A stretch of DNA of 64,000 nt from Mesostigma viride. Taxonomy: Eukaryota > Streptophyta > Mesostigmatophyceae > Mesostigmatales > Mesostigmataceae. The stretch's first letter is position 1. Each line of letters opens with the position of its first letter. The stretch covers positions 1-64,000 of the forward strand of contig RPFO01001560.1 of assembly GCA_009746045.1 (NCBI GenBank), in the 5' to 3' direction. Below the pieces are notes generated by a model. It ran no database searches. It was not told the origin of the DNA and worked only from the letters and a program-made list of their open reading frames with translations. The position numbers and the translations under genes were made by a program. Positions 7,614-60,654 of this stretch are shown here, one piece after another.

Positions 7614-9627
7614 TTTGTGAGCTCACGCTCGTTCTATCTATGACCTGCGGAAGTCTCAAAGGGGGAGGGGAGGCCGCAGTAGACAGGTCTGACTAGGTAG
7701 CCAGTACTAGGGGGGGGGGGTACGGTGTTGTGTGGGGGGGGGGTACCGGGGACGGTACTGTGGACCGGGTCCAATTTGTGTTGTGGACCGGGGGCAGTCC
7801 TGTGGACCGGGGACGGCGCGGCGCCACTGGCCTGTTGGTCAGTGGGCTGGCATCCGTCACCCCACCTACGACTAGGTAGACGGTGGATACTTAGGGTTGT
7901 GGCGGGGCAACAACCACTCCTCTTTGCAGCTGTGTCGACGGCCCACTGACGGCGTGTGTGCACTGCTATGGCGGTGCCGAATGTAAATCACAGCTACCGG
8001 CCTCCGAATTACTATTCGGGGGCCTGTTTTATTTAAGGTTATGACGGCTGCGCGACGGGGGTCGGCAGCACCCCAAGAACTTGCCGTTCGAAGTGCAGGC
8101 GGTAGCTGCCAGTGCCAGATTGTATTTAGTTTTGCTGCGTTGTACTCGCCACCCCGGGCTCGCGGGAGGGGTCTGGATAGACGCGGGAGTGACTCTTGAT
8201 CGGACAACTAAAGCGGGGCAGTCGTGGTGCTAGGGTGGCAACAGCTACAGGCGGAGGGGGAATACGCCGCAGGCAAGTTCGTTGTGTATCGTATGTGCTG
8301 GGCCTGGCTAATGAATATCGTCAAGAATAGTGCATGAGCGCGCTATACGAGCATGGGAAGAAGGGGGAATCGAGCCCCCAGGCCAGCATAGGAGCGGGGT
8401 GGCTGCAGCCCCAGCGCCAGGGGGGGCAGCACCCTAAACAGCCTAACATTTCCTCGTGCCAAGTGAGGCGACAGCGGCCGGCGGCCAGCGCGGAATGGCG
8501 GGGTCGTTGCCGCGTAATTTAAGCGGGGACGAGTTGTTGGGACTGACGGTGCACAGCGGGGAAGGGGAAGGATGTTAGGGCGGGGCGATAGCGGATCCCA
8601 GGCGCAGCTGCGTCATTGGGGTGCCGGGGGTGCTATGCCTGTGAAGAAAGGTGTACCAAGAATTGCCGAGCCTGCAGGGGTGGCTGCCGAGGGCAGTGCC
8701 CACATGGGTGAGAACCCCCCCGCAGTGGGGGGTCCCTACGGGGATACTTTTGGCTTCCCCTTTGTATTGCCGCCTGGTTAATGAAGCACTGGTAGCGGCA
8801 GGGGACAAGGGGGGCGACGAGAAGTCTGGGCCATACGACAGCTTGCGGCCAAGTGGCCAGGTAGTGGGTGCGGGATGTTACAAAGCCCAGGTCCTCTTGA
8901 CTGGCCCAGGTCCTTATGACTGGTATGATGTTTCGGCCCTTGTTGTGTGGCCTAGTTAGCTTAGAAACTGCAGATTCTTAGGTTAGCTAATGGCTTGCAC
9001 GTGTGCCTAACACGTATTTGTAATAAACATGTTTCTCTGGCAGCCCCTCACTCCAATGGAACTAAAGCAGCAATTGGATTTTGTGAGCTCACGCTCGTTC
9101 TATCTATGACCTGCGGAAGTCTCAAAGGGGGAGGGGAGGCCGCAGTAGACAGGTCTGACTAGGTAGCCAGTACTAGGGGGGGGGTACGGTGTTGTGGGGG
9201 GGGGGTACCGGGGACGGTACTGTGGACCGGGTCCAATTTGTGTTGTGGACCGGGGGCAGTCCTGTGGACCGGGGACGGCGCGGCGCCACTGGCCTGTTGG
9301 TCAGTGGGCTGGCGTCCGTCACCCCACCTACGACTAGGTAGACGGTGGATACTTAGGGTTGTGGCGGGGCAACAACCACTCCTCTTTGCAGCTCCCACCC
9401 ACCCACCCTTGCTGCCAGACGGATGTTACAAAGCCCAGGTCCTCTTGACTGGCCCAGGTCCTTATGACTGGTATGATGTTTCGGCCCTTGTTGTGTGGCC
9501 TAGTTAGCTTAGAAACTGCAGATTCTTAGGTTAGCTAATGGCTTGGACGTGTGCCTAACACGTATTTGTAATAAACATGTTTCTCTGGCAGCCCCTCACT
9601 CCAATGGAACTAAAGCAGCAATTGGAT
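7614..9627 (+). mobile_element. Family A split-direct-repeat element, copy 1
   Basis: Layout: A1 7614-7931, internal 7932-8872, B1 8873-9079, A2 9080-9393, C-rich linker 9394-9420, B2 9421-9627. A2 repeats A1 and B2 repeats B1. Flanking minisatellite rejoins as CTGCAC|ACACACG with no base lost or duplicated. The 5' end is TTTGT + GAGC-TCAC-GCTC stem-loop. The 3' end has TATTTGTAATAAAC and TCTGG 44 bp from the terminus. A hairpin lies at about 7999-8024. The internal part has no reading frame whose amino-acid sequence is conserved between copies, so it is non-autonomous. The layout matches PAT/TOC1-type tyrosine-recombinase retrotransposons (known architecture); assignment to that class is inference. 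Confidence 0.85.
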
Positions 9628-10800
9628 ACACACGTACATACACCGCGCACGCAAGGGGCAACTGCACACACATGTACATACACCGCGCACGCAAGGGGCA
9701 ACTGCACACACATGTACACACACCGCGCACGCAAGGGGCAACTGCACACACACGTACACACACCGCGCACGCTTGGGGCGGCTGCACACACACGTACCTA
9801 CACCGCGCACGCAAGGGGCGGCTGCACACACACGTACATCCACCGCGCACGCAAGGGGCAACTGCACACACATGTACACACACCGCGCACGCTTGGGGCA
9901 GCTGCACTCACATGTACACACACCGCGCACGCAAGGGCCGGCTGCACACACACGTACATCCACCGCGCACGCAAGGGGCAACTGCACACACACGTACATC
10001 CACCGCGCACGCAAGGGGCGGCTGCACACACACGTACACACACCGCGCACGCAAGGGGCAACTGCACACACATGTACACACACCGCGCACGCTTGGGGCG
10101 GCTGCACACACACGTACCTACACCGCGCACGCAAGGGCCGGCTGCACACACACGTACATACACCGCGCACGCAAGGGGCAACTGCACACACATGTACATA
10201 CACCGCGCAACCACGGGGCGGCTGCACACACACGTACATACACCGCGCACGCTTGGGGCAGCTGCACTCACATGTACACACACCGCGCACGCAAGGGGCG
10301 ACTGCACACACATGTACATCCACCGCGCACGCAAGGGCCGGCTGCACACACACGTACACACACCATGCACGCAAGGGCCGGCTGCACACACACGTACATC
10401 CACCGCGCACGCAAGGGGCAACTGCACACACACGTACACACACCGCGCACGCAAGGGGCGGCTGCACACACACGTACACACACCATGCACGCAATTGCCG
10501 GCATGCACACACACGTACATCCACCGCGCACGCAAGGGGCAACTGCACACACATGTACACACACCGCGCACGCTTGGGGCAGCTGCACTCACATGTACAC
10601 ACACCGCGCACGCAAGGGCCGGCTGCACACACACGTACATACACCGCGCACGCAAGGGGCAACTGCACACACATGTACACACACCGCGCACGCAAGGTGC
10701 AACTGCACACACACGTACACACACCGCGCACGCTTGGGGCGGCTGCACACACACGTACCTACACCGCGCACGCAAGGGGCGGCTGCACACACACGTACAT
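9628..10800. repeat. 40-bp minisatellite, segment 2
   Basis: About 29 units. The order of unit variants matches 16270-17442 in segment 3, so this segment is a duplicate of that stretch. Bounded by A copies on both sides. Confidence 0.95.
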
Positions 10801-12809
10801 TTTGTGAGCTCACGCTCGTTCTATCTATGACCTGCGGAAGTCTCAAAGGGGGAGGGGAGGCCGCAGTAGACAGGTCTGACTAGGTAGCCAGTACTAGGGG
10901 GGGGGGTACGGTGTTGTGGGGGGGGGTACCGGGGACGGTACTGTGGACCGGGTCCAATTTGTGTTGTGGACCGGGGGCAGTCCTGTGGACCGGGGACGGC
11001 GCGGCGCCACTGGCCTGTTGGTCAGTGGGCTGGCGTCCGTCACCCCACCTACGACTAGGTAGACGGTGGATACTTAGGGTTGTGGCGGGGCAACAACCAC
11101 TCCTCTTTGCAGCTGTGTCGACGGCCCACTGACGGCGTGTGTGCACTGCTATGGCGGTGCCGAATGTAAATCACAGCTACCGGCCTCCGAATTATCATTC
11201 GGGGGCCTGGATAATTTAAGGTTATGACGGCTGCGCGACGGGGGTCGGCAGCACCCCAAGAACTTGCCGTTCGAAGTGCAGGCGGTAGCTGCCAGTGCCA
11301 GATTGTTTAAATTTTTGCTGCGTTGTACTCGCCACCCCGGGCTCGCGGGAGGGGTCTGGATAGACGCGGGAGTGACTCTTGATCGGACAACTAAAGCGGG
11401 GCAGTCGTGGTGCTAGGGTGGCAACAGCTACAGGCGGAGGGGGAATACGCCGCAGGCAAGTTCGTTGTGTATCGTATGTGCTGGGCCTGGCTAATGAATA
11501 TCGTCAAGAATAGTGCATGAGCGCGCTATACGAGCATGGGAAGAAGGGGGAATCGAGCCCCCAGGCCAGCATAGGAGCGGGGTGGCTGCAGCCCCAGCGC
11601 CAGGGGGGCAGCACCCTAAACAGCCTAACATTTCCTCGTGCCAAGTGAGGCGACAGCGGCCGGCGGCCAGCGCGGAATGGCGGGGTCGTTGCCGCGTAAT
11701 TTAAGCGGGGACGAGTTGTTGGGACTGACGGTGCACAGCGGGGAAGGGGAAGGATGTTAGGGCGGGGCGATAGCGGATCCCAGACGCAGCTGCGTCATTG
11801 GGGTGCCGGGGGTGCTATGCCTGTGAAGAAAGGTGTACAAAGAATTGCCGAGCCTGCAGGGGTGGCTGCCGAGGGCAGTGCCCACATGGGTGAGAACCCC
11901 CCGCAGTGGGGGGTCCCTACGGGGATACTTTTGGCTTCCCCTTTGTATTGCCGCCTGGTTAATGAAGCACTGGTAGCGGCAGGGGACAAGGGGGCGACGA
12001 GAAGTCTGGGCCATACGACAGCTTGCGGCCAAGTGGCCAGGTAGTGGGTGCGGGATGTTACAAAGCCCAGGTCCTCTTGACTGGCCCAGGTCCTTATGAC
12101 TGGTATGATGTTTCGGCCCTTGTTGTGTGGCCTAGTTAGCTTAGAAACTGCAGATTCTTAGGTTAGCTAATGGCTTGGACGTGTGCCTAACACGTATTTG
12201 TAATAAACATGTTTCTCTGGCAGCCCCTCACTCCAATGGAACTAAAGCAGCAATTGGATTTTGTGAGCTCACGCTCGTTCTATCTATGACCTGCGGAAGT
12301 CTCAAAGGGGGAGGGGAGGCCGCAGTAGACAGGTCTGACTAGGTAGCCAGTACTAGGGGGGGGGGTACGGTGTTGTGTGGGGGGGGGTACCGGGGACGGT
12401 ACTGTGGACCGGGTCCAATTTGTGTTGTGGACCGGGGGCAGTCCTGTGGACCGGGGACGGCGCGGCGCCACTGGCCTGTTGGTCAGTGGGCTGGCGTCCG
12501 TCACCCCACCTACGACTAGGTAGACGGTGGATACTTAGGGTTGTGGCGGGGCAACAACCACTCCTCTTTGCAGCTCCCACCCACCCACCCTTGCTGCCAG
12601 ACGGATGTTACAAAGCCCAGGTCCTCTTGACTGGCCCAGGTCCTTATGACTGGTATGATGTTTCGGCCCTTGTTGTGTGGCCTAGTTAGCTTAGAAACTG
12701 CAGATTCTTAGGTTAGCTAATGGCTTGGACGTGTGCCTAACACGTATTTGTAATAAACATGTTTCTCTGGCAGCCCCTCACTCCAATGGAACTAAAGCAG
12801 CAATTGGAT
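10801..12809 (+). mobile_element. Family A split-direct-repeat element, copy 2
   Basis: Long part 10801-12259, then A2-B2 12260-12809. Flanks rejoin as CGTACAT|CCACCG; the uninterrupted sequence is present at 17442/17443. It shares with copy 4 the subfamily variants ATTATCATTCGGGGG and GGATAATTTAAGG, which distinguishes both from copies 1, 3, 5 and 6. Confidence 0.85.
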
Positions 12810-15800
12810 CCACCGCGCACGCAAGGGGCAACTGCACACACATGTACACACACCGCGCACGCTTGGGGCAGCTGCACTCACATGTACACACACCGCGCAC
12901 GCAAGGGGCAACTGCACACACACGTACATCCACCGCGCACGCAAGGGGCGGCTGCACACACACGTACACACACCGCGCACGCAAGGGGCAACTGCACACA
13001 CATGTACACACACCGCGCACGCTTGGGGCGGCTGCACACACACGTACCTACACCGCGCACGCAAGGGGCGGCTGCACACACACGTACATACACCGCGCAC
13101 GCAAGGGGCAACTGCACACACATGTACATACACCGCGCACGCAAGGGGCAACTGCACACACATGTACACACACCGCGCACGCAAGGGGCAACTGCACACA
13201 CACGTACACACACCGCGCACGCTTGGGGCGGCTGCACACACACGTACCTACACCGCGCACGCAAGGGGCGGCTGCACACACACGTACATCCACCGCGCAC
13301 GCAAGGGGCAACTGCACACACATGTACACACACCGCGCACGCTTGGGGCAGCTGCACTCACATGTACACACACCGCGCACGCAAGGGCCGGCTGCACACA
13401 CACGAAAAACCACCGCGCACGCAAGGGGCAACTGCACACACACGTACATCCACCGCGCACGCAAGGGGCGGCTGCACACACACGTACACACACCGCGCAC
13501 GCAAGGGGCAACTGCACACACATGTACACACACCGCGCACGCTTGGGGCGGCTGCACACACACGTACCTACACCGCGCACGCAAGGGGCGGCTGCACACA
13601 CACGTACATACACCGCGCACGCAAGGGGCAACTGCACACACATGTACATACACCGCGCAACCACGGGGCGGCTGCACACACACGTACATACACCGCGCAC
13701 GCAAGGGGCAACTGCACAAACATGTACACACACCGCGCACGCTTGGGGCGGCTGCACACACACGTACCTACACCGCGCACGCAAGGGGCGGCTGCACACA
13801 CACGTACATACACCGCGCACGCAAGGGGCGACTGCACACACATGTACATACACCGCGCAACCACGGGGCGGCTGCACACACACGTACACACACCGCGCAC
13901 GCAAGGGGCAGCTGCACACACACGTACATACACCATGCACGCAAGGGGCTGCACACACACTTACACACACCTTGCACGCAAGGGCCGGCATGCACACACA
14001 CTGGCATACACCGCGCACGCAAGGGGCGGCTGCACACACGTACATACACCGCGCACGCAAGGGGCGGCTGCACACACACGTACATACACCGCGCACGCAA
14101 GGGGCGGCTGCACACATACGTACACACACCGCGCACGCTTGGGGCAGCTGCACTCACATGTACACACACCGCGCACGCAAGGGCGGGCTGCACACACACG
14201 TACATACACCGCGCACGCAAGGGGCAACTGCACACACATGTACACACACCGCGCACGCAAGGGGCAACTGCACACACACGTACACACACCGCGCACGCTT
14301 GGGGCGGCTGCACACACACGTACCTACACCGCGCACGCAAGGGGCGGCTGCACACACACGTACATCCACCGCGCACGCAAGGGGCAACTGCACACACATG
14401 TACACACACCGCGCACGCTTGGGGCAGCTGCACTCACATGTACACACACCGCGCACGCAAGGGGCGGCTGCACACACACGTACATCCACCGCGCACGCAA
14501 GGGGCAACTGCACACACACGTACATCCACCGCGCACGCAAGGGGCGGCTGCACACACACGTACACACACCGCGCACGCAAGGGGCAACTGCACACACATG
14601 TACACACACCGCGCACGCTTGGGGCGGCTGCACACACACGTACCTACACCGCGCACGCAAGGGGCGGCTGCACACACACGTACATACACCGCGCACGCAA
14701 GGGGCAACTGCACACACATGTACATACACCGCGCACGCAAGGGGCAACTGCACACACATGTACACACACCGCGCACGCAAGGGGCAACTGCACACACACG
14801 TACACACACCGCGCACGCTTGGGGCGGCTGCACACACACGTACCTACACCGCGCACGCAAGGGGCGGCTGCACACACACGTACATCCACCGCGCACGCAA
14901 GGGGCAACTGCACACACATGTACACACACCGCGCACGCTTGGGGCAGCTGCACTCACATGTACACACACCGCGCACGCAAGGGCCGGCTGCACACACACG
15001 TACATCCACCGCGCACGCAAGGGGCAACTGCACACACACGTACATCCACCGCGCACGCAAGGGGCGGCTGCACACACACGTACACACACCGCGCACGCAA
15101 GGGGCAACTGCACACACATGTACACACACCGCGCACGCTTGGGGCGGCTGCACACACACGTACCTACACCGCGCACGCAAGGGCCGGCTGCACACACACG
15201 TACATCCACCGCGCACGCAAGGGGCAACTGCACACACATGTACATACACCGCGCAACCACGGGGCGGCTGCACACACACGTACATACACCGCGCACGCAA
15301 GGGGCAACTGCACAAACATGTACACACACCGCGCACGCTTGGGGCGGCTGCACACACACGTACCTACACCGCGCACGCAAGGGGCGGCTGCACACACACG
15401 TACATACACCGCGCACGCAAGGGGCAACTGCACACACATGTACATACACCGCGCAACCACGGGGCGGCTGCACACACACGTACACACACCGCGCACGCAA
15501 GGGGCAGCTGCACACACACGTACATACACCATGCACGCAAGGGGCTGCACACACACTTACACACACCTTGCACGCAAGGGCCGGCATGCACACACACTGG
15601 CATACACCGCGCACGCAAGGGGCGGCTGCACACACGTACATACACCGCGCACGCAAGGGGCGGCTGCACACAGACGTACATACACCGCGCACGCAAGGGG
15701 CGGCTGCACACATACGTACACACACCGCGCACGCTTGGGGCAGCTGCACTCACATGTACACACACCGCGCACGCAAGGGCGGGCTGCACACACACGTACA

Positions 15801-18800
15801 TACACCGCGCACGCAAGGGGCAACTGCACACACATGTACACACACCGCGCACGCAAGGGGCAACTGCACACACACGTACACACACCGCGCACGCTTGGGG
15901 CGGCTGCACACACACGTACCTACACCGCGCACGCAAGGGGCGGCTGCACACACACGTACATCCACCGCGCACGCAAGGGGCAACTGCACACACATGTACA
16001 CACACCGCGCACGCTTGGGGCAGCTGCACTCACATGTACACACACCGCGCACGCAAGGGGCGGCTGCACACACACGTACATCCACCGCGCACGCAAGGGG
16101 CAACTGCACACACACGTACATCCACCGCGCACGCAAGGGGCGGCTGCACACACACGTACACACACCGCGCACGCAAGGGGCAACTGCACACACATGTACA
16201 CACACCGCGCACGCTTGGGGCGGCTGCACACACACGTACCTACACCGCGCACGCAAGGGGCGGCTGCACACACACGTACATACACCGCGCACGCAAGGGG
16301 CAACTGCACACACATGTACATACACCGCGCACGCAAGGGGCAACTGCACACACATGTACACACACCGCGCACGCAAGGGGCAACTGCACACACACGTACA
16401 CACACCGCGCACGCTTGGGGCGGCTGCACACACACGTACCTACACCGCGCACGCAAGGGGCGGCTGCACACACACGTACATCCACCGCGCACGCAAGGGG
16501 CAACTGCACACACATGTACACACACCGCGCACGCTTGGGGCAGCTGCACTCACATGTACACACACCGCGCACGCAAGGGCCGGCTGCACACACACGTACA
16601 TCCACCGCGCACGCAAGGGGCAACTGCACACACACGTACATCCACCGCGCACGCAAGGGGCGGCTGCACACACACGTACACACACCGCGCACGCAAGGGG
16701 CAACTGCACACACATGTACACACACCGCGCACGCTTGGGGCGGCTGCACACACACGTACCTACACCGCGCACGCAAGGGCCGGCTGCACACACACGTACA
16801 TACACCGCGCACGCAAGGGGCAACTGCACACACATGTACATACACCGCGCAACCACGGGGCGGCTGCACACACACGTACATACACCGCGCACGCTTGGGG
16901 CAGCTGCACTCACATGTACACACACCGCGCACGCAAGGGGCGACTGCACACACATGTACATCCACCGCGCACGCAAGGGCCGGCTGCACACACACGTACA
17001 CACACCATGCACGCAAGGGCCGGCTGCACACACACGTACATCCACCGCGCACGCAAGGGGCAACTGCACACACACGTACACACACCGCGCACGCAAGGGG
17101 CGGCTGCACACACACGTACACACACCATGCACGCAATTGCCGGCATGCACACACACGTACATCCACCGCGCACGCAAGGGGCAACTGCACACACATGTAC
17201 ACACACCGCGCACGCTTGGGGCAGCTGCACTCACATGTACACACACCGCGCACGCAAGGGCCGGCTGCACACACACGTACATACACCGCGCACGCAAGGG
17301 GCAACTGCAAACACATGTACACACACCGCGCACGCAAGGGGCAACTGCACACACACGTACACACACCGCGCACGCTTGGGGCGGCTGCACACACACGTAC
17401 CTACACCGCGCACGCAAGGGGCGGCTGCACACACACGTACATCCACCGCGCACGCAAGGGGCAACTGCACACACATGTACACACACCGCGCACGCTTGGG
17501 GCAGCTGCACTCACATGTACACACACCGCGCACGCAAGGGGCGGCTGCACACACACGTACATCCACCGCGCACGCAAGGGGCAACTGCACACACACGTAC
17601 ATCCACCGCGCACGCAAGGGGCGGCTGCACACACACGTACACACACCGCGCACGCAAGGGGCAACTGCACACACATGTACACACACCGCGCACGCTTGGG
17701 GCGGCTGCACACACACGTACCTACACCGCGCACGCAAGGGGCGGCTGCACACACACGTACATACACCGCGCACGCAAGGGGCAACTGCACACACATGTAC
17801 ATACACCGCGCACGCAAGGGGCAACTGCACACACATGTACACACACCGCGCACGCAAGGGGCAACTGCACACACACGTACACACACCGCGCACGCTTGGG
17901 GCGGCTGCACACACACGTACCTACACCGCGCACGCAAGGGGCGGCTGCACACACACGTACATCCACCGCGCACGCAAGGGGCAACTGCACACACATGTAC
18001 ACACACCGCGCACGCTTGGGGCAGCTGCACTCACATGTACACACACCGCGCACGCAAGGGCCGGCTGCACACACACGAAAAACCACCGCGCACGCAAGGG
18101 GCAACTGCACACACACGTACATCCACCGCGCACGCAAGGGGCGGCTGCACACACACGTACACACACCGCGCACGCAAGGGGCAACTGCACACACATGTAC
18201 ACACACCGCGCACGCTTGGGGCGGCTGCACACACACGTACCTACACCGCGCACGCAAGGGGCGGCTGCACACACACGTACATCCACCGCGCACGCAAGGG
18301 GCAACTGCACACACATGTACATACACCGCGCAACCACGGGGCGGCTGCACACACACGTACATACACCGCGCACGCAAGGGGCAACTGCACACACATGTAC
18401 ACACACCGCGCACGCTTGGGGCGGCTGCACACACACGTACCTACACCGCGCACGCAAGGGGCGGCTGCACACACACGTACATACACCGCGCACGCAAGGG
18501 GCAACTGCACACACATGTACATACACCGCGCAACCACGGGGCGGCTGCACACACACGTACACACACCGCGCACGCAAGGGGCAGCTGCACACACACGTAC
18601 ATACACCATGCACGCAAGGGGCTGCACACACACTTACACACACCTTGCACGCAAGGGCCGGCATGCACACACACTGGCATACACCGCGCACGCAAGGGGC
18701 GGCTGCACACACGTACATACACCGCGCACGCAAGGGGCGAGTGCACACACACGTACACACACCGCGCACGCAATTAAGGGACGGCTGCACACACACGTAC

Positions 18801-19761
18801 ATACACCGCGCACGCAAGGGGCAACGGCACTCACATGTACATACACCATGCACGCAAGGGGCGGCTGCACACACACGTACACACACCATGCACGCAAGGA
18901 GCGACTTCACGCACAGGTACACACACCATGCACGCAAGGTTCGGCTGCACACACATGTACATCCACCGCGCACGCAAGGGGCGGCTGCACACACATGTAC
19001 ATACACCATGCACGCAAGGGGCGGCTGCACACACCTGTACATCCACCGCGCATGCAAGGGGCGAGTGCACACACACGTACCTACACCGCGCACGCAAGGG
19101 GCGGCTGCACTCACATGTACACACACCGCGCACGCAAGGGGCGGCTGCACACACACGTACACACACCATGCACGCAATTGCCGGCATGCACACACACGTA
19201 CATCCACCGCGCACGCAAGGGGCAACTGCACACACATGTACACACACCGCGCACGCTTGGGGCAGCTGCACTCACATGTACACACACCGCGCACGCTTGG
19301 GGCGGCTGCACACACACGTACATACACCGGGCACGCAAGGGGCGGCTGCACTTACATGTACACACACCACGCACGCAAGGGGCGGCTGCACACACACGTA
19401 CATACACCGCGCACGCAAGGACCGGCTCCACTCACATGTACATCCACCGCGCAACCACGGGGCGGCTGCACACACACGTACATACACCGCGCACGCAAGG
19501 GGCTGCTGCACACACACTTACACACAAAATGCACGCTTGGGGCGACGGCACTCACATGTACATACACCGCCCACGAAAGGGGTGGCTGCACACACACGTA
19601 CATCCACCGCGCACGCAAGGGGCGGCTGCACACACACATACATACACCATGCACGCAAGGGGCGAGTGCAAAAACATGTACATACACCGCGCACGCAAGG
19701 GGCAACTGCCCACACATGGACATACACCATGCACGCAAGGGGCGGCTGCACACACATGTAC
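12810..19761. repeat. 40-bp minisatellite, segment 3, with higher-order repeats
   Basis: About 174 units. Unit variants recur in blocks of 520 bp (13 units; for example CTTGGGGCAGCTGCACTCAC at about 14418 and 14938) and in a larger block of about 1,596 bp, shown by the paired stretches 13248-14153 and 14844-15749. An irregular stretch (AAGGGGCTGCAC, CTTGCACGC, ACTGGCATACACC) recurs at about 13945, 15540 and 18618. It contains the empty sites for A copy 2 (17442) and for the A copy 5/6 tandem (18527). It ends at reverse A copy 3. Confidence 0.96.
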
Positions 19762-21270: not shown

Positions 21271-21404
21271 TTCTATTAACCGTGGAACTCCAGGGTAACC
21301 AGACTCTTTATTAAAACAATAAGTAGAGCACATCGGGAAGTGGCCCTCAACTGGCCATCCTTACCCATGGGAACACTTTATGTCCAAAAAGGCTAGCCTT
21401 ACCC
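21271..21404 (-). repeat. Element C split direct repeat B2
   Basis: 134 bp, same as 21817-21950 (B1). On the minus strand it carries AATAAAG and TCTGGTTACCC close to the 3' terminus, ending TTAATAGAA. Confidence 0.88.
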
Positions 21405-21950: not shown

Positions 21951-22026
21951 TTACATCCCTCCCTGGCGACCCAAGCCAGGGGCAAAACCAAAACCGGTGG
22001 ACGCATAAGACAAGAATGAAGGGAAC

Positions 22027-25993: not shown

Positions 25994-26040
25994 TGTAGGA
26001 AGAGGCAGTGGGAAGGGGGAGCGGTTTACCCTTTCGGTGT

Positions 26041-47469: not shown

Positions 47470-47479
47470 TGGATTAGAC

Positions 47480-50390: not shown

Positions 50391-50404
50391 CTGCGCACCT
50401 GGAG

Positions 50405-51544
50405 GTGCTCTGCCACAAGTGCCTGGGACCGCCTCACGGGGACCCCGCCAAGTGCACCAAGGAGCCGTGGCAGCCCCCTAAATGTAAGTCCTCACACCCT
50501 CACACGTGTCATGATGAGTCGTGTCCCCTACACCACCCAATATCCAGCTCCACTGCCCAGGCAGGGACACAGGATGGGAGGATGTTGACAGGATGTCAAG
50601 TTAACTCTGTTACCTCTCACTCTCCACCTTCATGCTCAGCTGTCAAGGCTGTAAGCAAGGTTGGCAAAGTGTTGAAGTATTACACAGAAACCTCTGACAG
50701 TGAACCCAGGTTCACCTCCTTGATACCCAAGGTGTCCAGGGTCATGACCCAAGCTCTTAGTAACATCAGTTATGAGGAGCTGGCATTGCAACTGCACTTA
50801 CTGTATGGTCATGAGACATGTGCAGAGGTGGTAGCAGCTGCATTGGGAGGTACGGCACTCAGGAAGGCATGTCAGCTGATCAGAAAACACTGTCAGCACT
50901 GCCAAATGTATGCACCTAAACCACCCAAGTGGCATGTAGCTACACCACCTAAGTGCAAGGGCAGAGTGGTCGGGGATGTGTTCCATATTAAGGGACAGCC
51001 CTATCTGGCTTTAAAGGACGCATGGTCCAGGTACACAGCAATAGAACCTCTCCCTGGTATGGACAAGTCTCAGTTGCATAGAGCTATATTAATAGCACAA
51101 GCCAGGTACTACCCAGTAGAAGCACTGCTGTTAGATCAGCAATTTAGTTGCCTTGCTGGGGCAGAGGGCTGTGAAGCTATAGACCTGGCTGGGCTAGAAG
51201 ATCATGAGAGACAAGGTATCATTGAGAGGGCAATTAGGTCTATCAAAACCTTGGTAGCCAAAGAAGGTGAGAACCTGTTAGCTGACAGTGGGTCATACGC
51301 TGATAGGGCACTGTGGGCTACTAAGATATGCCAGATACTCAATAGACGACCACTCCTGCAGACACCCTATGGTATTATCACACCAGATGGGTTACAGGCT
51401 GGGATATACCCACCTGAGGTACTAGCTGTGTACAATGCACAGCGTGCCCACGCTGCCAGCAGATTGGCAGCCAAGGATGCCAAGCATCCACGCCCTCCTT
51501 CAAGGAAGGGGACACAGTTCTCTTCTATAAGGAGTCAGGGCTAG
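50405..51544 (+). CDS. Integrase of the copia-like element
   Basis: Begins with a second Cys/His cluster (CHKCLGPPHGDPAKC), then integrase. The zinc-binding HHCC is LHLLYGHETC ... CQLIRKHCQHC (about 50790-50910). The catalytic triad is VVGDVF (about 50975), LLLDQQF (about 51135) and GIIERAIRS (about 51225). The second Asp and the Glu are 30 residues apart, shorter than the usual 35. The frame stops at 51544, but the GDTVLFYKESG...WLGPATIL domain typical of integrase C-termini continues in the next frame from about 51505, so one frameshift separates integrase from the rest of Pol. The start is set by open frame, not by an ATG; it is probably part of a polyprotein. Confidence 0.8.
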   Translation: MLCHKCLGPPHGDPAKCTKEPWQPPKCKSSHPHTCHDESCPLHHPISSSTAQAGTQDGRMLTGCQVNSVTSHSPPSCSAVKAVSKVGKVLKYYTETSDSEPRFTSLIPKVSRVMTQALSNISYEELALQLHLLYGHETCAEVVAAALGGTALRKACQLIRKHCQHCQMYAPKPPKWHVATPPKCKGRVVGDVFHIKGQPYLALKDAWSRYTAIEPLPGMDKSQLHRAILIAQARYYPVEALLLDQQFSCLAGAEGCEAIDLAGLEDHERQGIIERAIRSIKTLVAKEGENLLADSGSYADRALWATKICQILNRRPLLQTPYGIITPDGLQAGIYPPEVLAVYNAQRAHAASRLAAKDAKHPRPPSRKGTQFSSIRSQG

Positions 51545-51606
51545 GGAAGGTTGGGACATGGTTAGGCCCAGCCACTATCCTTAAGTTTTCCAGCACAGGC
51601 AAGACT

Positions 51607-54126
51607 GTGCATGTGAAACACAATGACACTGGGCATGTGCACAAGTGCTCACCTCACAGGATTAAATTGTATTACACTCCACTGTCAGACGTGGCAGAGG
51701 AGGAAGAGCTGATGGTCGACAGCTCAGTACAGTTGCCTGGTATATCTGGAGTACCCAGTGAGTGGTTGTTTGGAACACACACTGGTGAGTGTGATAGCCA
51801 CAACACATGTGCACCCCAGGTCACCCTCAGTGAGCCTAGCCAGCCACAGCAGGTTAGACCACCTGTCAACGAGGGCACTAACCAAGAAGGTGGTCAGCAA
51901 GACAGCACACCTTCAGCGGTACCAGCTCAACCCATACCTACCGTGTCCAAACATGGGCTAGCAGAAGCGGTCCGCATACTGCAAGCAGCGCATAGAGCCA
52001 AAGCTCACACTGCTGCAGGGTCAGCCAAAGTGAGTAGGGCAGGTCACAGCGACAACAATCCAGCTCTAGTCGCGGTTGACACCCAAGCTCAGGTTAGCAT
52101 CATCAGTGCATTGGCTGTACCACACCTAGAGTTAGAGCCTTCCCCTTGGCAACGGGTGGCTGATTTCTCTGGGCAGGCTAGCTTGACTGTTAAAGGTCAG
52201 GTTACCTTAAACATTCTTGGTATCCCCACACCTTTTCAGGTACTGGAAGGATACACAGGAAATGCTTTGTTGGGTGATCCATTTATTTCTTACCCAGGTG
52301 TCACCATCTCTTGTGATAGGCTTGAGGTACAGGGCCTGGGTGGGGTGTCACTTGATCATTTTCAGGTACCACTCCAGACTTTGGTTGACACACAGCCAGC
52401 CACTGTCAAATTTGTTGCACCAAAGTATGCACCTGGGCACGAGCCACGTGTGGCAGATTTGGTGCACAGTCAGAAACTGCACCCCAAAGCATTTGGATTG
52501 GGAAAGTATGATGTTGCAAAAATGTCTCCCCTCTCCTATGAGCAGATTGTCCAGGACTGTCAAACTCAGGAAGGTTTCACTAAGTGGGTTGAAGCTTTTA
52601 GAAAGGCTATGGATGAATGGGTGGTTCCAGATCCACGTAGTCCCACCCACACACCTCCAGTCACTCCCTTAGAGCGTAAGCCCAACGGGAGCAAGCACCT
52701 AAGACTTAAGTTCGTGTGCAAGCACAAGCAAGCAGCAGATGGCTCTGTCATTTTCCATGCTAGGCCTTGTGTGACTGAGTTTAAGGGATCCACTGATTTG
52801 ACAGAGGCAGATCTGTATACACCTGGCATTCAGCAAACTTCTCTTAAAATTTTGCTGTCTGTTTTTCTAGGGCACATCAATCAAGGTGATGATTATGTGT
52901 GCAAAGCCACTGACATTAAACGTGCATTTCTGAAAGGCTCACCTGAAATAGCTGAGCAAGTTTGGCATGGGAAGGTGTATGTGGTCAACACACCTCAGGT
53001 GTGGTCTAAGGATATCCCACAACCATTTCTGAAAGCCAACATAGGAGTGGAAGGTCTGCAATCTGCTCCTAGAATTTTCAGAATGTCAGCTCAAGCTGTG
53101 TTTGAGAAGCTAGGTGCTCGGTATGATGACATAGACCCTTGCTTCTTTGTTGTCCCTCACCCTCATGGCATGATCATGTTTGTGTGGCATGGGGATGATC
53201 AGCTTATTGCTGGGCCTAGGCAGGCTGTGGATGATTTTATTGCCAACGTGTCTAAGTCTTTTGAGATTGGCAAGCAGCTAGAGCTGGGCACCATTGCTAT
53301 TAAGTTCTGTGGCACAATGTTGCAGCTTCAGAAGCAAGCAGATCAGTGGGTCTGTGCAATGTACTCTCCATCAGATTACATGCACAGTTGTAAGGAAGTG
53401 CTGCAGACTAAAATCAAACCTTGTGACTGTCCCACCATTAGGGGCAAGCTGGGGTGGTTGTGTTCTACTTGTGCACCACACTTGGCAGTAGTCAGCAGGG
53501 TTGATGATGCAGTTCTTATGCAGGTAGGCCACAAGGCTATCAACAAGCTCCTGCAGGCTGGTCCACCCCTTATCTTGCATTCCCTGGAACTCTTTAAGCC
53601 CATTCACATTCAGGCTATAATGGACAGTTCCATGGAATCACGGCAGATTACTCAACTGCAGGCTAGGGAGGCTGGCTTATTTTTTGTACAAAATGCTGAC
53701 CAACCCATGTCACTCATCTCATGGTATAGCAGGCTACATAGGCGTAAAGCTGTTAGTAGCAATGCTGCTGAGTGCAGGGCAGTTGTGTCAGCTGTGCTAC
53801 ATGCCAGGTATCTCAATCATGTCCTGGTTTGGTTACAGAAGCAAGCAGGCAGTCAGGCTGGGGTGGTGGCTCACTTGCACACCGACAGTCAATCTCTCCT
53901 CAGTTTCCTTGACAACCCTTATGCTGTGCATACTGATTTGGACTGGGTGATCCTGAAACAGGAGTGCACCTACTGGGAGTCTACCAATCATGTGCCGGAC
54001 AAGGCCAACGCCGCGGATGCGTTGACCAAGGTGCCCCAGCTAGCACCTGAGCAGTACCAACTGCTCTATCACATGATGAACCCCTACGGCAAGCAGGCCA
54101 GCCTGCCCCCGCCGGTAGACACCTAG
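51607..54126 (+). CDS. Retropepsin-like, RT and RNase H polyprotein of the copia-like element
   Basis: 839 residues from the first ATG; the open frame reaches further 5' and includes the integrase C-terminus. Domain order: ALVAVDTQAQVSII (retropepsin active-site loop, Asp near residue 158) with NALLGDPFI (near 221); RT with ATDIKRAFLKGS (Asp near 436) and FVWHGDDQLIAG (DD near 530, where copia usually has YVDD); RNase H with MDSSMES (about 672), NAAECRA (722), LHTDSQS (760) and the copia signature NAADALTK. DTQA replaces the usual DTGA or DSGA, so protease activity is uncertain. In Ty1/copia elements the protease normally precedes integrase; here it follows. Confidence 0.85.
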   Translation: MHVKHNDTGHVHKCSPHRIKLYYTPLSDVAEEEELMVDSSVQLPGISGVPSEWLFGTHTGECDSHNTCAPQVTLSEPSQPQQVRPPVNEGTNQEGGQQDSTPSAVPAQPIPTVSKHGLAEAVRILQAAHRAKAHTAAGSAKVSRAGHSDNNPALVAVDTQAQVSIISALAVPHLELEPSPWQRVADFSGQASLTVKGQVTLNILGIPTPFQVLEGYTGNALLGDPFISYPGVTISCDRLEVQGLGGVSLDHFQVPLQTLVDTQPATVKFVAPKYAPGHEPRVADLVHSQKLHPKAFGLGKYDVAKMSPLSYEQIVQDCQTQEGFTKWVEAFRKAMDEWVVPDPRSPTHTPPVTPLERKPNGSKHLRLKFVCKHKQAADGSVIFHARPCVTEFKGSTDLTEADLYTPGIQQTSLKILLSVFLGHINQGDDYVCKATDIKRAFLKGSPEIAEQVWHGKVYVVNTPQVWSKDIPQPFLKANIGVEGLQSAPRIFRMSAQAVFEKLGARYDDIDPCFFVVPHPHGMIMFVWHGDDQLIAGPRQAVDDFIANVSKSFEIGKQLELGTIAIKFCGTMLQLQKQADQWVCAMYSPSDYMHSCKEVLQTKIKPCDCPTIRGKLGWLCSTCAPHLAVVSRVDDAVLMQVGHKAINKLLQAGPPLILHSLELFKPIHIQAIMDSSMESRQITQLQAREAGLFFVQNADQPMSLISWYSRLHRRKAVSSNAAECRAVVSAVLHARYLNHVLVWLQKQAGSQAGVVAHLHTDSQSLLSFLDNPYAVHTDLDWVILKQECTYWESTNHVPDKANAADALTKVPQLAPEQYQLLYHMMNPYGKQASLPPPVDT

Positions 54127-55148
54127 TCCACCCCTCCCCAGGGAGGGTGGCTAGTCTCCCCACCCCTACTATGGGGCAACCCCTGTCAGGGGGTAGGGGT
54201 ACCCAGACCCGGGCCCAGGCCACGGGGTGTCTTATCATCAGCACTAGCTCCTGGGGAGGAGCTGAACCTGTATGCCTTGTAAGCCCTGTTTTATGGTGAA
54301 TAAATTGAGTCTCTTTGACTTTGTCTCTCTCATGGAATTTCGTTAGCTCATCTCTTGGGAGGTGAGCTGTCAATCCTTCACAAGTGTGTCATTGTGTCAG
54401 TCATGGTGACAGTACTTGTACATGGCATTGTTATGTGGCTGGGTCATGTTCATGGTTACCTTGTACATGTGCATGTGCATGTGCATGTAACGTGTGACAG
54501 TCTTAGTCCTGTGACTGTGCCTGTTGTGTCTTATGCTGCCATCTGGTCCCAGGACCTGTGGTAGGGTGATGGGCAGTCCACCCATTCGCCATGTGCAAAT
54601 CAAGTGGAGAACCAGTTCCCACTTGTCAGTTGCCTGTGCTTACCACCATGTGGCACTCACAGGTATCTGGCTGCTCTGGCCCAGGTCAGCAGTGGCAAAA
54701 CATCAGGTCCTAAGCACCTGGGGAAGACCTCTGGTTTCACTAGAGTCATCCCATTGGTTTTTGGGAAGTGGATGTTGCATGGGGTTCCATCCACAAGTGG
54801 CAATCAAGCCCCCCTTTTTCTACCATCTGCAGTGACAGATGCCAGGGAAATGACGACAATTCGCTCCTTCAAAGATGGAAACTGGGCACTCCTTATATGC
54901 TGTGACATGTGACTTGCATGACGTCCTGTGTGACGAATGGCCGCAGTACCTCATTTATGTTTTCCCCACTATTGAGGGGGAGGAACCCCCGTAGTGCTTG
55001 GCAGGGTTAAATCAGCAGTCAGCATCAGTATAGTCCGTTTCTGGGGCCCTTCTCTAATCCAGTTGTGACTGTATGGGCTCTGGTTGCCTTGCAACGGTTG
55101 GTAGGTCAGACTTGGAGCATGTTCCAATCTGAAAGAAAACATAATGGG
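54127..55148 (+). other. Non-coding 3' internal region of the copia-like element
   Basis: About 1 kb between the Pol stop and the 3' LTR without a credible gene. It holds an AATAAA at about 54299, a CATGTGCATGTGCATGTGCATG microrepeat near 54467-54488 (given here only as a GTGCAT repeat), and a purine-rich GAAAGAAAACATAATGGG directly before the LTR that may be the polypurine tract. The length is unusual for a compact copia element. Confidence 0.6.
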
Positions 55149-55557
55149 AGTTAGCTGAGATACCTCGAGGCTGACTTGTGGCCGGAGCCACACAGGGGAA
55201 CATACAGTGTGACCGGAGTTATTCTGGCGGAGACAGAATAACGGTGCCGAGCGCCGGTTGTGGCGCGACGCACACACGTGTACGCAAGTTACGTAGCTAG
55301 CAACTAGTCTAGTGGACGTTGTGCGTAGTAACGTTGCTCCAGGTCTAGAAGCCTCTAGAACCTGGACACGTGGCGGACAAGTGAGCGTAGTCCAGTTGTC
55401 CTAGGGATCTCGTGTGAGTGATGTGTCCACGACATATAATGTGTGCCCACATATGGAGTGAATAATGACAAGGAACGCCCCGATCCCTGGCGTTGCTGCA
55501 GCCATCATTCTCACACTGAGTCCCCAACGTCTCCGACGTACATCTATATATCTAACT
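55149..55557 (+). repeat. 3' LTR
   Basis: 409 bp; one extra C relative to the 5' LTR is the only difference seen. Followed by the ACATG target duplication and the continuing minisatellite. Confidence 0.9.
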
Positions 55558-58500
55558 ACATGTACACACACCGCGCACGCAAGGGGCGGCTGCACACACA
55601 CGTACCTACACCGCGCACGCAAGGGGCGGCTGCACACTGTCACACGTACATACACCGCGCACGCAAGGGGCAACTGCACACACATGTACATACACCGCGC
55701 ACGCAAGGGGCAACTGCACACACATGTACACACACCGCGCACGCAAGGGGCAACTGCACACACACGTACACACACCGCGCACGCTTGGGGCGGCTGCACA
55801 CACACGTACCTACACCGCGCACGCAAGGGGCGGCTGCACACACACGTACATCCACCGCGCACGCAAGGGGCAACTGCACACACATGTACACACACCGCGC
55901 ACGCTTGGGGCAGCTGCACTCACATGTACACACACCGCGCACGCAAGGGCCGGCTGCACACACACGAAAAACCACCGCGCACGCAAGGGGCAACTGCACA
56001 CACACGTACATCCACCGCGCACGCAAGGGGCGGCTGCACACACACGTACACACACCGCGCACGCAAGGGGCAACTGCACACACATGTACACACACCGCGC
56101 ACGCTTGGGGCGGCTGCACACACACGTACCTACACCGCGCACGCAAGGGCGGCTGCACACACACGTACATACACCGCGCACGCAAGGGGCAACTGCACAC
56201 ACATGTACATACACCGTGCAACCACGGGGCGGCTGCACACACACGTACATACACCGCGCACGCAAGGGGCAACTGCACACACATGTACACACACCGCGCA
56301 CGCTTGGGGCGGCTGCACACACACGTACCTACACCGCGCACGCAAGGGGCGGCTGCACACACACGTACATACACCGCGCACGCAAGGGGCAACTGCACAC
56401 ACATGTACATACACCGCGCAACCACGGGGCGGCTGCACACACACGTACACACACCGCGCACGCAAGGGGCAGCTGCACACACACGTACATACACCATGCA
56501 CGCAAGGGGCTGCACACACACTTACACACACCTTGCACGCAAGGGCCGGCATGCACACACACTGGCATACACCGCGCACGCAAGGGGCGGCTGCACACAC
56601 GTACATACACCGCGCACGCAAGGGGCGAGTGCACACACACGTACACACACCGCGCACGCAATTAAGGGACGGCTGCACACACACGTACATACACCGCGCA
56701 CGCAAGGGCAACGGCACTCACATGTACATACACCATGCACGCAAGGGGCGGCTGCACACACACGTACACACACCATGCACGCAAGGAGCGACTTCACGCA
56801 CAGGTACACACACCATGCACGCAAGGTTCGGCTGCACACACATGTACATCCACCGCGCACGCAAGGGGCGGCTGCACACACATGTACATACACCATGCAC
56901 GCAAGGGGCGGCTGCACACCCATGTACATCCACCGCGCACGCAAGGGGCGAGTGCACACACACGTACACACACCGCGCACGCAAGGGGCGGCTGCACACA
57001 CACGTACACACACCATGCACGCAATTGCCGGCATGCACACACACGTACATCCACCGCGCACGCAAGGGGCAACTGCACACACATGTACACACACCGCGCA
57101 CGCTTGGGGCAGCTGCACTCACATGTACACACACCGCGCACGCAAGGGCCGGCTGCACACACACGTACATACACCGCGCACGCAAGGGGCAACTGCACAC
57201 ACATGTACACACACCGCGCACGCAAGGGGCAACTGCACACACACGTACATACACCGCGCACGCAAGGGGCAACTGCACACACATGTACATACACCGCGCA
57301 ACCACGGGGCGGCTGCACACACACGTACATACACCGCGCACGCAAGGGGCAACTGCACACACATGTACACACACCGCGCACGCTTGGGGCGGCTGCACAC
57401 ACACGTACCTACACCGCGCACGCAAGGGGCGGCTGCACACACACGTACATACACCGCGCACGCAAGGGGCAACTGCACACACATGTACATACACCGCGCA
57501 ACCACGGGGCGGCTGCACACACACGTACACACACCGCGCACGCAAGGGGCAGCTGCACACACACGTACATACACCATGCACGCAAGGGGCTGCACACACA
57601 CTTACACACACCTTGCACGCAAGGGCCGGCATGCACACACACTGGCATACACCGCGCACGCAAGGGGCGGCTGCACACACGTACATACACCGCGCACGCA
57701 AGGGGCGGCTGCACACACACGTACATACACCGCGCACGCTTGGGGCAGCTGCACTCACATGTACACACACCGCGCACGCTTGGGGCGGCTGCACACACAC
57801 GTACCTACACCGCGCACGCAAGCGGCGGCTGCACACACACGTACATACACCGCGCACGCAAGGGGCAACTGCACACACATGTACATACACCGCGCAACCA
57901 CGGGGCGGCTGCACACACACGTACATACACCGCGCACGCAAGGGGCGGCTGCACACATACGTACATACACCGCGCACGCAAGGGGCGACTGCACACCCAT
58001 GTACATCCACCGCGCACGCAAGGGCCGGCTGCACACACACGTACACACACCATGCACGCAAGGGCCGGCTGCACACACACGTACATACACCGCGCACGCA
58101 AGGGGCGGCTGCACACACACGTACACACACCGCGCACGCAAGGGGCAGCTGCACACACACGTACATACACCATGCACGCAAGGGGCTGCACACACACGTA
58201 CAGACACCATGCACGCAAGGGCCGGCATGCACACACAGTACACACACCGCGCACGCAAGGGGCGGCTGCACACACACGTACATACACTGCGCACGCAAGG
58301 GGCTGCTGCACACACACTTACACTCACCATGCACGCGAGGGTCGGCTGCACACACACGTACACACACCGCGCACGCAAGGGACGGCTGCACACACACGTA
58401 CATACACCGCGCACGCAAGGGGCGGCTGCACTTATATGTACACACACCACGCACGCAAGGGGCGGCTGCACACACACGTACATACACCGCGCACGCAAGG

Positions 58501-58845
58501 ACCGGCTCCACTCACATGTACATCCACCGCGCAACCACGGGGCGGCTGCACACACACGTACATACACCGCGCACGCAAGGGGCTGCTGCACACACACTTA
58601 CACACAAAATGCACGCTTGGGGCGACGGCACTCACATGTACATACACCGCGCACGAAAGGGGTGGCTGCACACACACGTACATCCACCGCGCACGCAAGG
58701 GGCGGCTGCACACACACATACATACATGCACCATGCACGCAAGGGGCGAGTGCACACACATGTACATACACCGCGCACGCAAGGGGCAACTGCCCACACA
58801 TGGACATACACCATGCACGCAAGGGGCGGCTGCACACACATGTAC
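55558..58845. repeat. 40-bp minisatellite, segment 7
   Basis: About 82 units. A CACTGTCACACG interruption near 55635 is unique to this segment. From about 56430 the unit order follows that at 18530-19760 and 39930-41150, including the GCAATTAAGGGACGG unit. Confidence 0.95.
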
Positions 58846-60654
58846 TATCCGAGCTTTTGCTCACCTTATCTGCGGTATAGCGGGACTACGGAAGTCTGGG
58901 GTGCGGCCGAATAGAATTGCCGCGTAAGACTAGGAGGAGGAGGTGCGCCGGCTGTGACCGGTAGGGTTCGTTCCGCCTGTGTGCGGTCTACCGCCTGCGC
59001 GCGGTAGAAAGAATTAGAAAATCTGTACGAATTTGTGAAAACGAACCTTTAATAGCAGTGGCACAAGTGACGGGGGAAGGGTAGGGGCAGACCTGGCGCA
59101 GCGCCAGCGCCAGCGCCGGTACCGTTGCAATTTCGGTACCAACGCCAGTGCCAGCGCCGCGCCAGCCTGACGGCCCTTGTGGTCTAGCATTTAGGCAGAC
59201 GAGGCAATGGCAGCAAAGCCTCTTTTGGTCCGCAATTTGCTGGCATATGCTGCCAACGTGACTAATTCGCTATGGCGATTATTAGACGGGCTAACGGCCT
59301 TGCCGCTGCGGCGGGAGGGCTGGAAATTTAATCAGTTATGTTAGCCGCGCGCAAGGAGAGCGGCGGCTCGAAATTTGGCCCTCTATCGGCCCAGATTGGA
59401 GAAGTGGGGTGCATCTAGGTCCGCGGGGCCGCGGGATGGAAAAATAACATAAAATAATGCACTACGATTTCGTAGACTGAGTGACGTATGAGATAGCGGC
59501 CTTCCTGAAGGGATGGAAGCGCAGGAAATTGAGGCGTCAATTGGCCTGCGGGGCAGCCTGCCCAGTCGCCATGGTTAGAAATCCTCAAGTCCGGACCGGA
59601 GTCGGGGGGGACGATACCCCCCAACTTCGCCTTTCCAATGCACGCTCTGCATACCACGTGGGAGGGAACGAGATGCTCGACCCCGCTGGGGACCTTGCCG
59701 CCTTGCCATGAGATGTGACGGGGGTAGCGGCAGCATAGGCGGGGGACGAGCTGGCATGAGAGGGGGGCGCCCTACTAACCGACGGCGACATTGCAGCGGT
59801 ATCACCGGAATTGACAACAACCCGACGTGGCGGATGTGAAACGACGTTCCGGATTTGCTGACGAAGTCGGCCAGGAAGGGAAGGTGGGGAATAGGCATAA
59901 GTCCACTTTAGTGGCAGCCACCCAAAGACCCCCTTTAGCACTTGTTAGGAGCCCTACAGTGCATGTTGGCTCTATTAAGCTGTACTTATTTGTAAAAAAC
60001 TATTGTTGTCTGGTGCAGCCCAAGCGTCAGTAGGTTAGCGTTAGAAGTGGATTATCCGAGCTTTTGCTCACCTTATCTGCGGTATAGCGGGACTACGGAA
60101 GTCTGGGGTGCGGCCGAATAGAATTGCCGCGTAAGACTAGGAGGAGGAGGTGCGCCGGCTGTGACCGGTAGGGTTCGTTCCGCCTGTGTGCGGTCTACCG
60201 CCTGCGCGCGGTAGAAAGAATTAGAAAATCTGTACGAATTTGTGAAAACGAACCTTTAATAGCAGTGGCACAAGTGACGGGGGAAGGGTAGGGGCAGACC
60301 TGGCGCAGCGCCAGCGCCAGCGCCGGTACCGTTGCAATTTCGGTACCAACGCCAGTGCCAGCGCCGCGCCAGCCTGACGGCCCTTGTGGTCTAGCATTTA
60401 GGCAGACGAGGCAATGGCAGCAAAGCCTCTTTTGGTCCCCCACCCACCCACCCTGAACTTGTTATACCAGTTGTCCAAAAGAGGCCAGGGGAATAGGCAT
60501 AAGTCCACTTTAGTGGCAGCCACCCAAAGACCCCCTTTAGCACTTGTTAGGAGCCCTACAGTGCATGTTGGCTCTATTAAGCTGTACTTATTTGTAAAAA
60601 ACTATTGTTGTCTGGTGCAGCCCAAGCGTCAGTAGGTTAGCGTTAGAAGTGGAT
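58846..60654 (+). mobile_element. Family B split-direct-repeat element
   Basis: Long part 58846-60052, short part 60053-60654. The A block is repeated from 58846 and 60053 (to about 59237/60438) and the B block from about 59889 and 60490 to the two ends. Flanks rejoin as TGTAC|ATCCACC without duplication. The 5' end is TATCC + GAGC-TTTT-GCTC; CGGAAGTCT follows at bases 44-52. The linker has CCCACCCACCCACCCT; the 3' end has TATTTGTAAAAAAC and TCTGG 44 bp from the terminus. The sequence is otherwise unlike family A. Internal part 59238-59888 has no recognisable protein. CAGCGC-rich repeats lie near 59098-59165 and 60305-60370. Confidence 0.82.

What the first reader, a model, noticed from the sequence alone, without database searches (positions are those of the whole stretch)
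7614..60654. Three sequence-unrelated families share one terminal code
A, B and C each begin with five bases and a small stem-loop (TTTGT-GAGC/GCTC, TATCC-GAGC/GCTC, TCGGG-GTTC/GAAC). Each then has CGGAAG followed by G-rich sequence at base 35-49, a C-rich CCCACCC tract in the A2-B2 linker, and a TCTGG box near the 3' end (44 bp from the end in both A and B, 33 in C). Elsewhere the families are not alignable by eye. This looks like a recognition code for a common replication or integration machinery and suggests a C-type element mobilises A and B.
Basis: partly seen in the sequence, partly recalled or inferred. Interest (0 to 1): 0.85.

Follow-up and report, generated by a model that had tools for sequence, protein, structure and literature searches.

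The report
Jumping-element families share replication signals
Three unrelated-looking repeat families in an algal genome (probably Mesostigma viride) belong to one known kind of jumping element that copies through RNA and inserts with a recombinase; they share a small end hairpin and a four-run C tract that look like common replication signals, but two of the three use a different landing code from the third.

Summary
A (7614-9627 and five more copies), B (58846-60654) and C (21271-27456, minus, inside an A copy) all have the split-direct-repeat layout A1-internal-B1-A2-linker-B2 of tyrosine-recombinase (YR) retrotransposons. C carries reverse-transcriptase and recombinase genes; A and B hold no frame of 250 aa. 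The best protein match points to Mesostigma viride.

Two code parts hold beyond A, B and C. The 5' hairpin sits at base 6 in 7 of 7 families or subfamilies with a readable 5' end (one start placed by eye), with both-sided changes at 3 of 4 pairs. The linker tract is (CCCN)3CCC behind a T-rich pyrimidine box; it is genome-wide (1022 hits, 42 in the reversed control) and led to further families. CGGAAG (4 of 7) and TCTGG (5 of 9) do not generalise as stated.

'C mobilises A and B' is weakened. A and B end GGAT|T and insert after G-Y-A-Y; C ends GAA|T and inserts after N-N-A-W. A and B lie often in a 40-bp minisatellite, sampled C copies never. A/B-type joints lie 594-626 bp downstream of recombinase motifs at three other places, so a closer helper probably exists; its sequence was not readable.

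The parts
7614..9627 (+). Family A element, copy 1: A1 7614-7931, internal, B1 8873-9079, A2 9080-9393, linker 9394-9420, B2 9421-9627
7619..7630 (+). A: 5' hairpin GAGC-TCAC-GCTC at base 6
7648..7653 (+). A: CGGAAG, followed by a G-rich stretch
9394..9408 (+). A: linker tract CCCACCCACCCACCC behind CTCTTTGCAGCT
9584..9588 (+). A: TCTGG, 44 bases from the 3' end, after TGTAATAAA
10801..12809 (+). Family A, copy 2, in the 40-bp minisatellite
29550..31558 (+). Family A, copy 3, in the minisatellite
35897..37902 (-). Family A, copy 4, head to tail with copy 5
37903..39914 (-). Family A, copy 5
19762..27959 (-). Family A, copy 6, split by the insertion of C (A parts 27456-27959 and 19762-21266)
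21271..27456 (-). Family C element (YR retrotransposon) inserted in A copy 6 without target-site duplication; B1/A2 joint at 21817/21816
27441..27451 (-). C: 5' hairpin GTTC-TCT-GAAC at base 6
27415..27420 (-). C: CGGAAG (base 37)
21423..21437 (-). C: linker tract CCCACCCGCCCTCCC (GGGAGGGCGGGTGGG on +)
21299..21303 (-). C: TCTGG, 33 bases from the 3' end, after TTTTAATAAAGA
26041..27135 (-). C: first reading frame (Gag position by order; no Pfam match at E 0.01)
23522..26809 (-). C: reverse transcriptase - RNase H frame (by homology; the matching frame of genomic copy L089 is 100% identical to a predicted Mesostigma protein over the aligned part)
21951..22769 (-). C: tyrosine recombinase, frame not intact in this copy (PF00589 E 0.0027, below its cut-off; E 9.6e-7, above it, in L089)
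22713..23597 (-). Extra block in the recombinase region of this C copy: three palindromes of about 206 bp; in most listed C pairs elsewhere A1 and A2 are about 0.8 kb closer
58846..60654 (+). Family B element: A1 58846-59231, B1 59886-60052, A2 60053-60438, linker, B2 60488-60654
58851..58862 (+). B: 5' hairpin GAGC-TTTT-GCTC at base 6
58889..58894 (+). B: CGGAAG
60437..60453 (+). B: linker tract CCCCCACCCACCCACCC behind CTCTTTTGGT
60611..60615 (+). B: TCTGG, 44 bases from the 3' end
5895..61900 (.). 40-bp minisatellite: eight blocks between 5895 and 61900 that hold the A and B copies

Best explanation
A, B and C are families of split-direct-repeat YR retrotransposons (the PAT/TOC/Ngaro kind of layout, DIRS order). 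C is a coding family; A and B are non-autonomous. Shown: the layout A1-int-B1-A2-linker-B2; precise insertion without target duplication; a hairpin at base 6; a (CCCN)3CCC tract in the linker; two classes of joint. Inferred: the RNA starts inside A1 and ends inside B2 after a poly(A)-type signal, the internal B1-A2 joint restores the missing ends, a circle forms, and the recombinase crosses the circle joint with a short target that resembles the element's own last four bases. The hairpin beside the joint is probably part of the recombinase site. The C tract, which would be a G-quadruplex motif on the first cDNA strand, is probably a signal of reverse transcription or strand transfer common to all families. 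A and B are probably mobilised by a coding family of their own GGAT|T joint class rather than by C.
For: Layout. Recombinase in C: PF00589 E 9.6e-7, above its cut-off, in copy L089; R, HxxR, RGRW and HYVGL stretches align with P0002 and P0003 (that these hold the catalytic residues is recalled). RT region: 69 proteins at E <= 0.001, many with PF00078. No target duplication: the two flanks add up to the intact minisatellite unit or to intact A. Stem at base 6 in 7 of 7 readable 5' ends, as GAGC/GCTC, GTTC/GAAC and TTTC/GAAA. Linker code 1022 hits against 42 in the control; a version designed to leave out A-D 435 against 2; it lies 631-658 bp behind the recombinase end of 11 of 13 D copies on the contigs that the list covers. 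Two target classes. A/B-type joints by a pattern that leaves out A and B: 367 against 0. Of the 100 listed, 3 lie 594-626 bp behind one of 42 non-D recombinase motifs on the same strand (a fourth at 2237 bp), none within 6 kb behind a motif on the other strand; expected within 700 bp 0.01-0.04 for assumed spans of 40-100 Mb.
Against: No RNA, circle or protein data. The other 97 listed A/B-type joints have no listed motif of the two codon forms searched within 700 bp upstream, and the sequence of these elements could not be read, so the helper is an inference from positions. In the reverse order (joint upstream of motif, within 6 kb) there is one case, at 4071 bp, which an A1 start could give but which I did not predict. 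The joint pattern could match an unrelated repeat by chance, as two other repeats did for an earlier pattern. Only 5 of the 100 listed A/B-type joints have a listed linker place within 6 kb, all on the same strand (linker lists partial). CGGAAG and TCTGG fail in several families. The 5' ends of A, B and C are at best borderline alike by sequence. Loci were taken from best matches, not at random, and some flanks may be duplicated arrays rather than separate insertions, so target counts may be biased.
Confidence: 0.7

Rival explanations
1. One reading: C (or its close relative D) supplies all proteins, and A and B are its parasites.
For: C carries the genes and is young (40 of 40 scored A-repeat places identical, of 459 first-look candidates); D has 78 scored places with an identical, stop-free 557-aa match; the linker tract and the base-6 hairpin are shared with A and B; both classes need an A at target position -2 (A+B 35 of 38, C 16 of 16).
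Against: Different joint (GAA|T against GGAT|T), different target preference at -4, -3 and -1, different distribution in the sample (left flanks in the minisatellite: A 19 of 21, B 7 of 17, C 0 of 16), and 3' ends of A and C not significantly alike.
Confidence: 0.2
2. No functional code: A, B and C descend from one ancestor, and the boxes are remnants of shared ancestry.
For: All have the same layout; the linker and, within a class, the 3' ends still align.
Against: Stem bases differ between families while pairing is kept, and the 5' sequences of A, B and C are at best borderline alike; the linker is kept while the middle parts are not significantly alike. Common descent plus selection is compatible with the best explanation.
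Confidence: 0.15
3. The shared boxes are chance picks by a reader who searched many motifs.
For: TCTGG and CGGAAG each arise in 1-6% of shuffles of one element, and many such words could have been picked; other repeats can mimic the 5' pattern.
Against: The tract arose in 0 of 7500 shuffles in place, is 24-fold over its control genome-wide, and led to new families; of these E keeps the hairpin with a start fixed independently by its repeats.
Confidence: 0.05

Closest known systems
PAT-like elements of the DIRS order (PAT, TOC, Kangaroo)
   Same: Split direct repeats A1-B1-A2-B2, YR in place of an integrase, known in green algae (passages of PMC4157794, PMC3266345 and PMC8226300).
   Different: No methyltransferase domain was detected in C. 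The shared linker tract and base-6 hairpin were not mentioned in the passages that I saw; I could not compare sequences with TOC1 or Kangaroo (the Kangaroo paper is not held).
Ngaro/VIPER-type YR retrotransposons
   Different: Kinship not tested by a tree; in the passages seen they are reported from fish, sea urchin, fungi and trypanosomes.
DIRS-1 of Dictyostelium
   Same: Incomplete RNA restored from an internal copy of the ends (proposed model), circle, no target duplication, insertion into own copies (PMC5633606 and PMC3266345 passages).
   Different: DIRS-1 has inverted terminal repeats and a 3-bp junction; here the repeats are split and direct.

Membership tests
Split-direct-repeat YR retrotransposon (PAT/Ngaro layout) | A1-internal-B1-A2-B2 repeats | tested here: met
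   A, B and C in the window; C also in L089
Split-direct-repeat YR retrotransposon (PAT/Ngaro layout) | Tyrosine recombinase gene | tested here: met
   C only: PF00589 E 9.6e-7 in L089; A and B are short and hold no frame of 250 aa
Split-direct-repeat YR retrotransposon (PAT/Ngaro layout) | Reverse transcriptase | tested here: met
   69 homologues at E <= 0.001, many with PF00078, a few with PF00589; no direct RT Pfam match for C itself
Split-direct-repeat YR retrotransposon (PAT/Ngaro layout) | No target-site duplication | tested here: met
PAT-like in the narrow sense | Methyltransferase domain | tested here: not met
   No such Pfam match in C, P0003 (partial) or P0002; a diverged domain is not excluded, and some distant homologues carry PF00145
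PAT-like or Ngaro | Position in an RT or YR tree with reference elements | not tested
   No reference sequences in hand
Helper-parasite pair C with A/B | Same circle joint and target specificity | tested here: not met
   GAA|T against GGAT|T; targets differ at -4, -3, -1 but share A at -2
Helper-parasite pair of A/B with a GGAT-class coding family | Coding element with the same joint | tested here: inconclusive
   Position evidence only, 3 of 100 listed joints; letters not available

The most novel reading that the evidence does not exclude
The (CCCN)3CCC tract behind a T-rich pyrimidine box is an obligatory replication signal of split-direct-repeat YR retroelements: as a G-quadruplex on the first cDNA strand it stops or switches second-strand synthesis between A2 and B2, which creates the split repeats and lets non-autonomous families with unrelated bodies use the same enzyme. 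The base-6 hairpin and the last four bases form a separate integration code that sorts families into mobilisation classes.
Probability: 0.25. Interest if true: 0.75.

Novelty: new variant of a known kind. Interest (0 to 1): 0.5.

Why it matters
How DIRS-order elements complete and circularise their DNA is not settled: a 2017 review says that the DIRS-1 model is experimentally not fully proven (PMC5633606 passage). A tract seen in ten families or subfamilies with otherwise different sequence is a concrete candidate for a missing signal and can be changed in an assay. The two joint classes suggest a simple rule for which non-autonomous family belongs to which helper. My searches found no description of DIRS-order elements in Mesostigma: none of the three papers listed for Mesostigma + DIRS + retrotransposon (listing only) is by title a study of its genome, and 'DIRS' does not occur in the main texts of two Mesostigma genome papers (term counts). 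Unheld papers and supplements were not searched.

Tried and rejected
Many-copy alignment within a family: no power, copies too alike. CGGAAG and TCTGG as universal boxes: rejected. A hairpin that brackets the C tract in every family: clear only in B (11 bp, 0 of 500 shuffles) and weak in A' (17 of 500); not in the other 8 of 10. D as helper of A and B: unlikely, its joint is of the C class. The first pattern for other GGAT-type 5' ends had 16 hits against 23 in the control, among them C copies; a second had 126 against 30, mostly two repeats, of which one has inverted ends. The stricter GAGC pattern with another loop start had 0 hits against 1. The recombinase family with the CAC codon (68 hits): 15 of the 68 lie on contigs that the joint list covers, and none is nearer than 20 kb to a listed A/B-type joint or 4.7 kb to a listed linker. 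A profile search with three pol proteins found no further Mesostigma protein. A DNA alignment of the short termini was misplaced because loop lengths differ and was not used for counts.
Full report
What is there. The window is contig C1906:1-64000 of a 440-Mb genome in 2243 contigs. The RT region of the C copy L089 is 100% identical, over the 88% of the query that aligns, to a predicted Mesostigma protein (record name Mesvir1), so the organism is most likely the streptophyte alga Mesostigma viride. Eight blocks of a 40-bp minisatellite fill much of the window. A lies in it in six copies, two of them head to tail; B lies in it once; C lies inside an A copy.

Layout. A copy 1 is 2014 bp (A1 318, B1 207, A2 314 aligned to the 318 of A1, linker 27, B2 207), B 1809 bp, and C 6186 bp here and 5361 bp in the genomic copy L089. 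In each, A2 repeats A1, B2 repeats B1, and B1 and A2 abut. This is the A1-B1-A2-B2 layout that PMC4157794 gives for PAT elements (passages). No reading frame of 250 aa lies within A copy 1 or B. L089 has a 352-aa first frame, a 993-aa RT/RNase H frame and a 278-aa recombinase frame, the last with PF00589 at E 9.6e-7. Frames differ between copies; I describe this only.

Insertion. I have 21 distinct left flanks of A, 17 of B and 16 of C. Where I read left and right flank side by side there is no target duplication: together they give an intact unit, for example CTGCAC|ACACACG for A, GTAC|ATCCACC for B, and AGAT|TGT of A for C. Position -2 is A in 35 of 38 A+B sites and 16 of 16 C sites. Position -4 is G in 34 of 38 against 3 of 16, -3 is a pyrimidine in 37 of 38 against 6 of 16, and -1 is A in 1 of 38 against 10 of 16 (Fisher P 9e-7 to 3e-6). 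Outside the minisatellite the same trend holds on fewer sites (7 of 10 against 3 of 16; 10 of 10 against 6 of 16; 1 of 10 against 10 of 16; P 0.003-0.015). The preferred left flank resembles the element's own last four bases, GGAT for A and B and AGAA for C (C: A at -4 in 9 of 16). In the minisatellite lie 19 of 21 left and 15 of 21 right flanks of A, 7 of 17 and 8 of 16 of B, 0 of 16 and 0 of 14 of C (the regex missed at least two units).

The linker tract. Scanning all 361 kb of held sequence (overlapping loci counted) for the tract alone gave 25 contexts: A, B, C and D forms, simple repeats, and new families E, F, G, H, I and a diverged A' in flanks of unrelated hits. Their tracts sit behind the same kind of T-rich pyrimidine box, with slightly other spacing in E, F and H. 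Genome-wide the exact form has 1022 hits against 42 for the reversed pattern, and a form designed to leave out A-D has 435 against 2.

5' hairpin. Seven families or subfamilies have a readable 5' end (A, A', B, C, D, E, I). All start with T and have a perfect 4-bp stem at base 6 with a loop of 3 or 4. Stems are GAGC/GCTC (A, A', B, I), GTTC/GAAC (C, D) and TTTC/GAAA (E): three of four pairs change on both sides. A/A'/I and C/D are related, and the start of I was placed by eye, so this is about four independent lineages. E, found without use of the hairpin and with its start fixed by its own repeats, is the cleanest single test (chance about 1%).

3' end. A/A' and B share TGTAA(T/A)AA...TCTGG..CAGCCC-like sequence; C/D, E and F share TTGTTTTAA(T/C)(A/G)AAGA.(T/G)CTGG. 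I read this as an RNA 3'-end signal (inference), which would leave the last 20-40 bases out of the RNA, as the DIRS model requires.

Joint classes and helper. A, A' and B have GGAT|T; C and D have AGAA|T, E has TGAA|T, and F ends in TGAA. A pattern for GGAT|T plus GAGC hairpin that leaves out A and B has 367 hits against 0 in the control. Among the first 100, nine same-strand pairs lie within 6 kb, seven of them 4891-4899 bp apart (C: 4843 bp from A1 to A2), and no opposite-strand pair. Of 42 typed recombinase motifs outside D, four have such a joint within 6 kb downstream on the same strand (594, 596, 626, 2237 bp), none on the opposite strand; in the reverse order there is one (4071 bp). So recombinase-coding elements with the A/B joint probably exist.

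What I do not claim. I have no evidence that the C tract folds, that circles exist, or that any family is moving now. Near-identity of the scored copies suggests recent activity. The branch (PAT or Ngaro) is open: no methyltransferase was found and no tree was made.

Literature. Passages seen: PMC3266345, PMC7027972, PMC6947507, PMC4157794, PMC8226300, PMC5633606. Listings only. A search with G-quadruplex, tyrosine recombinase, retrotransposon and DIRS (three of four terms asked) showed one paper with a single mention of G-quadruplex among the 10 listed of 99.

Noticed in passing
L090 (C1:5224150-5225450), 257-1183: A D copy in which B2 is cut short and followed by an inverted copy of the A repeat (arms 289, 89 and 63 nt at 98-100%), so its right end mirrors its A start. 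PMC4157794 says that intermediate forms between split direct and inverted repeats are not observed (passage); this single copy may be one, or a rearrangement.
   Followed up: partly
G000, e.g. C1579:2619658-2750227, C1480:2262179-2314451, C1391:761100-807543, C2:3851241-3914552: A further recombinase motif (68 hits, 0 in control) is often clustered in one region of a large contig (10, 5, 5 and 3 hits in these four); some non-D places fall in the same regions. A centromere-linked element would look so; DIRS-1 does this in Dictyostelium (passage).
   Followed up: no
window 22713-23597: Three palindromes of about 206 bp lie inside the recombinase region of the C copy; the whole block is 98% its own reverse complement.
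   Followed up: no
window 47061-55557: A copia-type LTR element (LTRs 410 bp, 99.8% identical; RVT_2 match) also sits in the minisatellite; 47912-49999 recurs inverted at 61915-64000.
   Followed up: no
P0002, P0003 and C pol: Between RNase H and recombinase, P0002 reads GDVESNPGP, which looks like a 2A peptide (motif recalled); C and D have the similar VHPNPGP and IHPNPGP.
   Followed up: no
L026, from 2516: In one family-I copy the linker tract has grown into a long CCCA array, so the tract can seed a microsatellite.
   Followed up: no
G000, e.g. C728:16078-16824 and C1552:88160-88907: A repeat of about 0.75 kb with inverted ends GGATTAAAAGCAC..GTGC..CGGAAG mimics the 5' pattern, a warning about chance look-alikes.
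   Followed up: no
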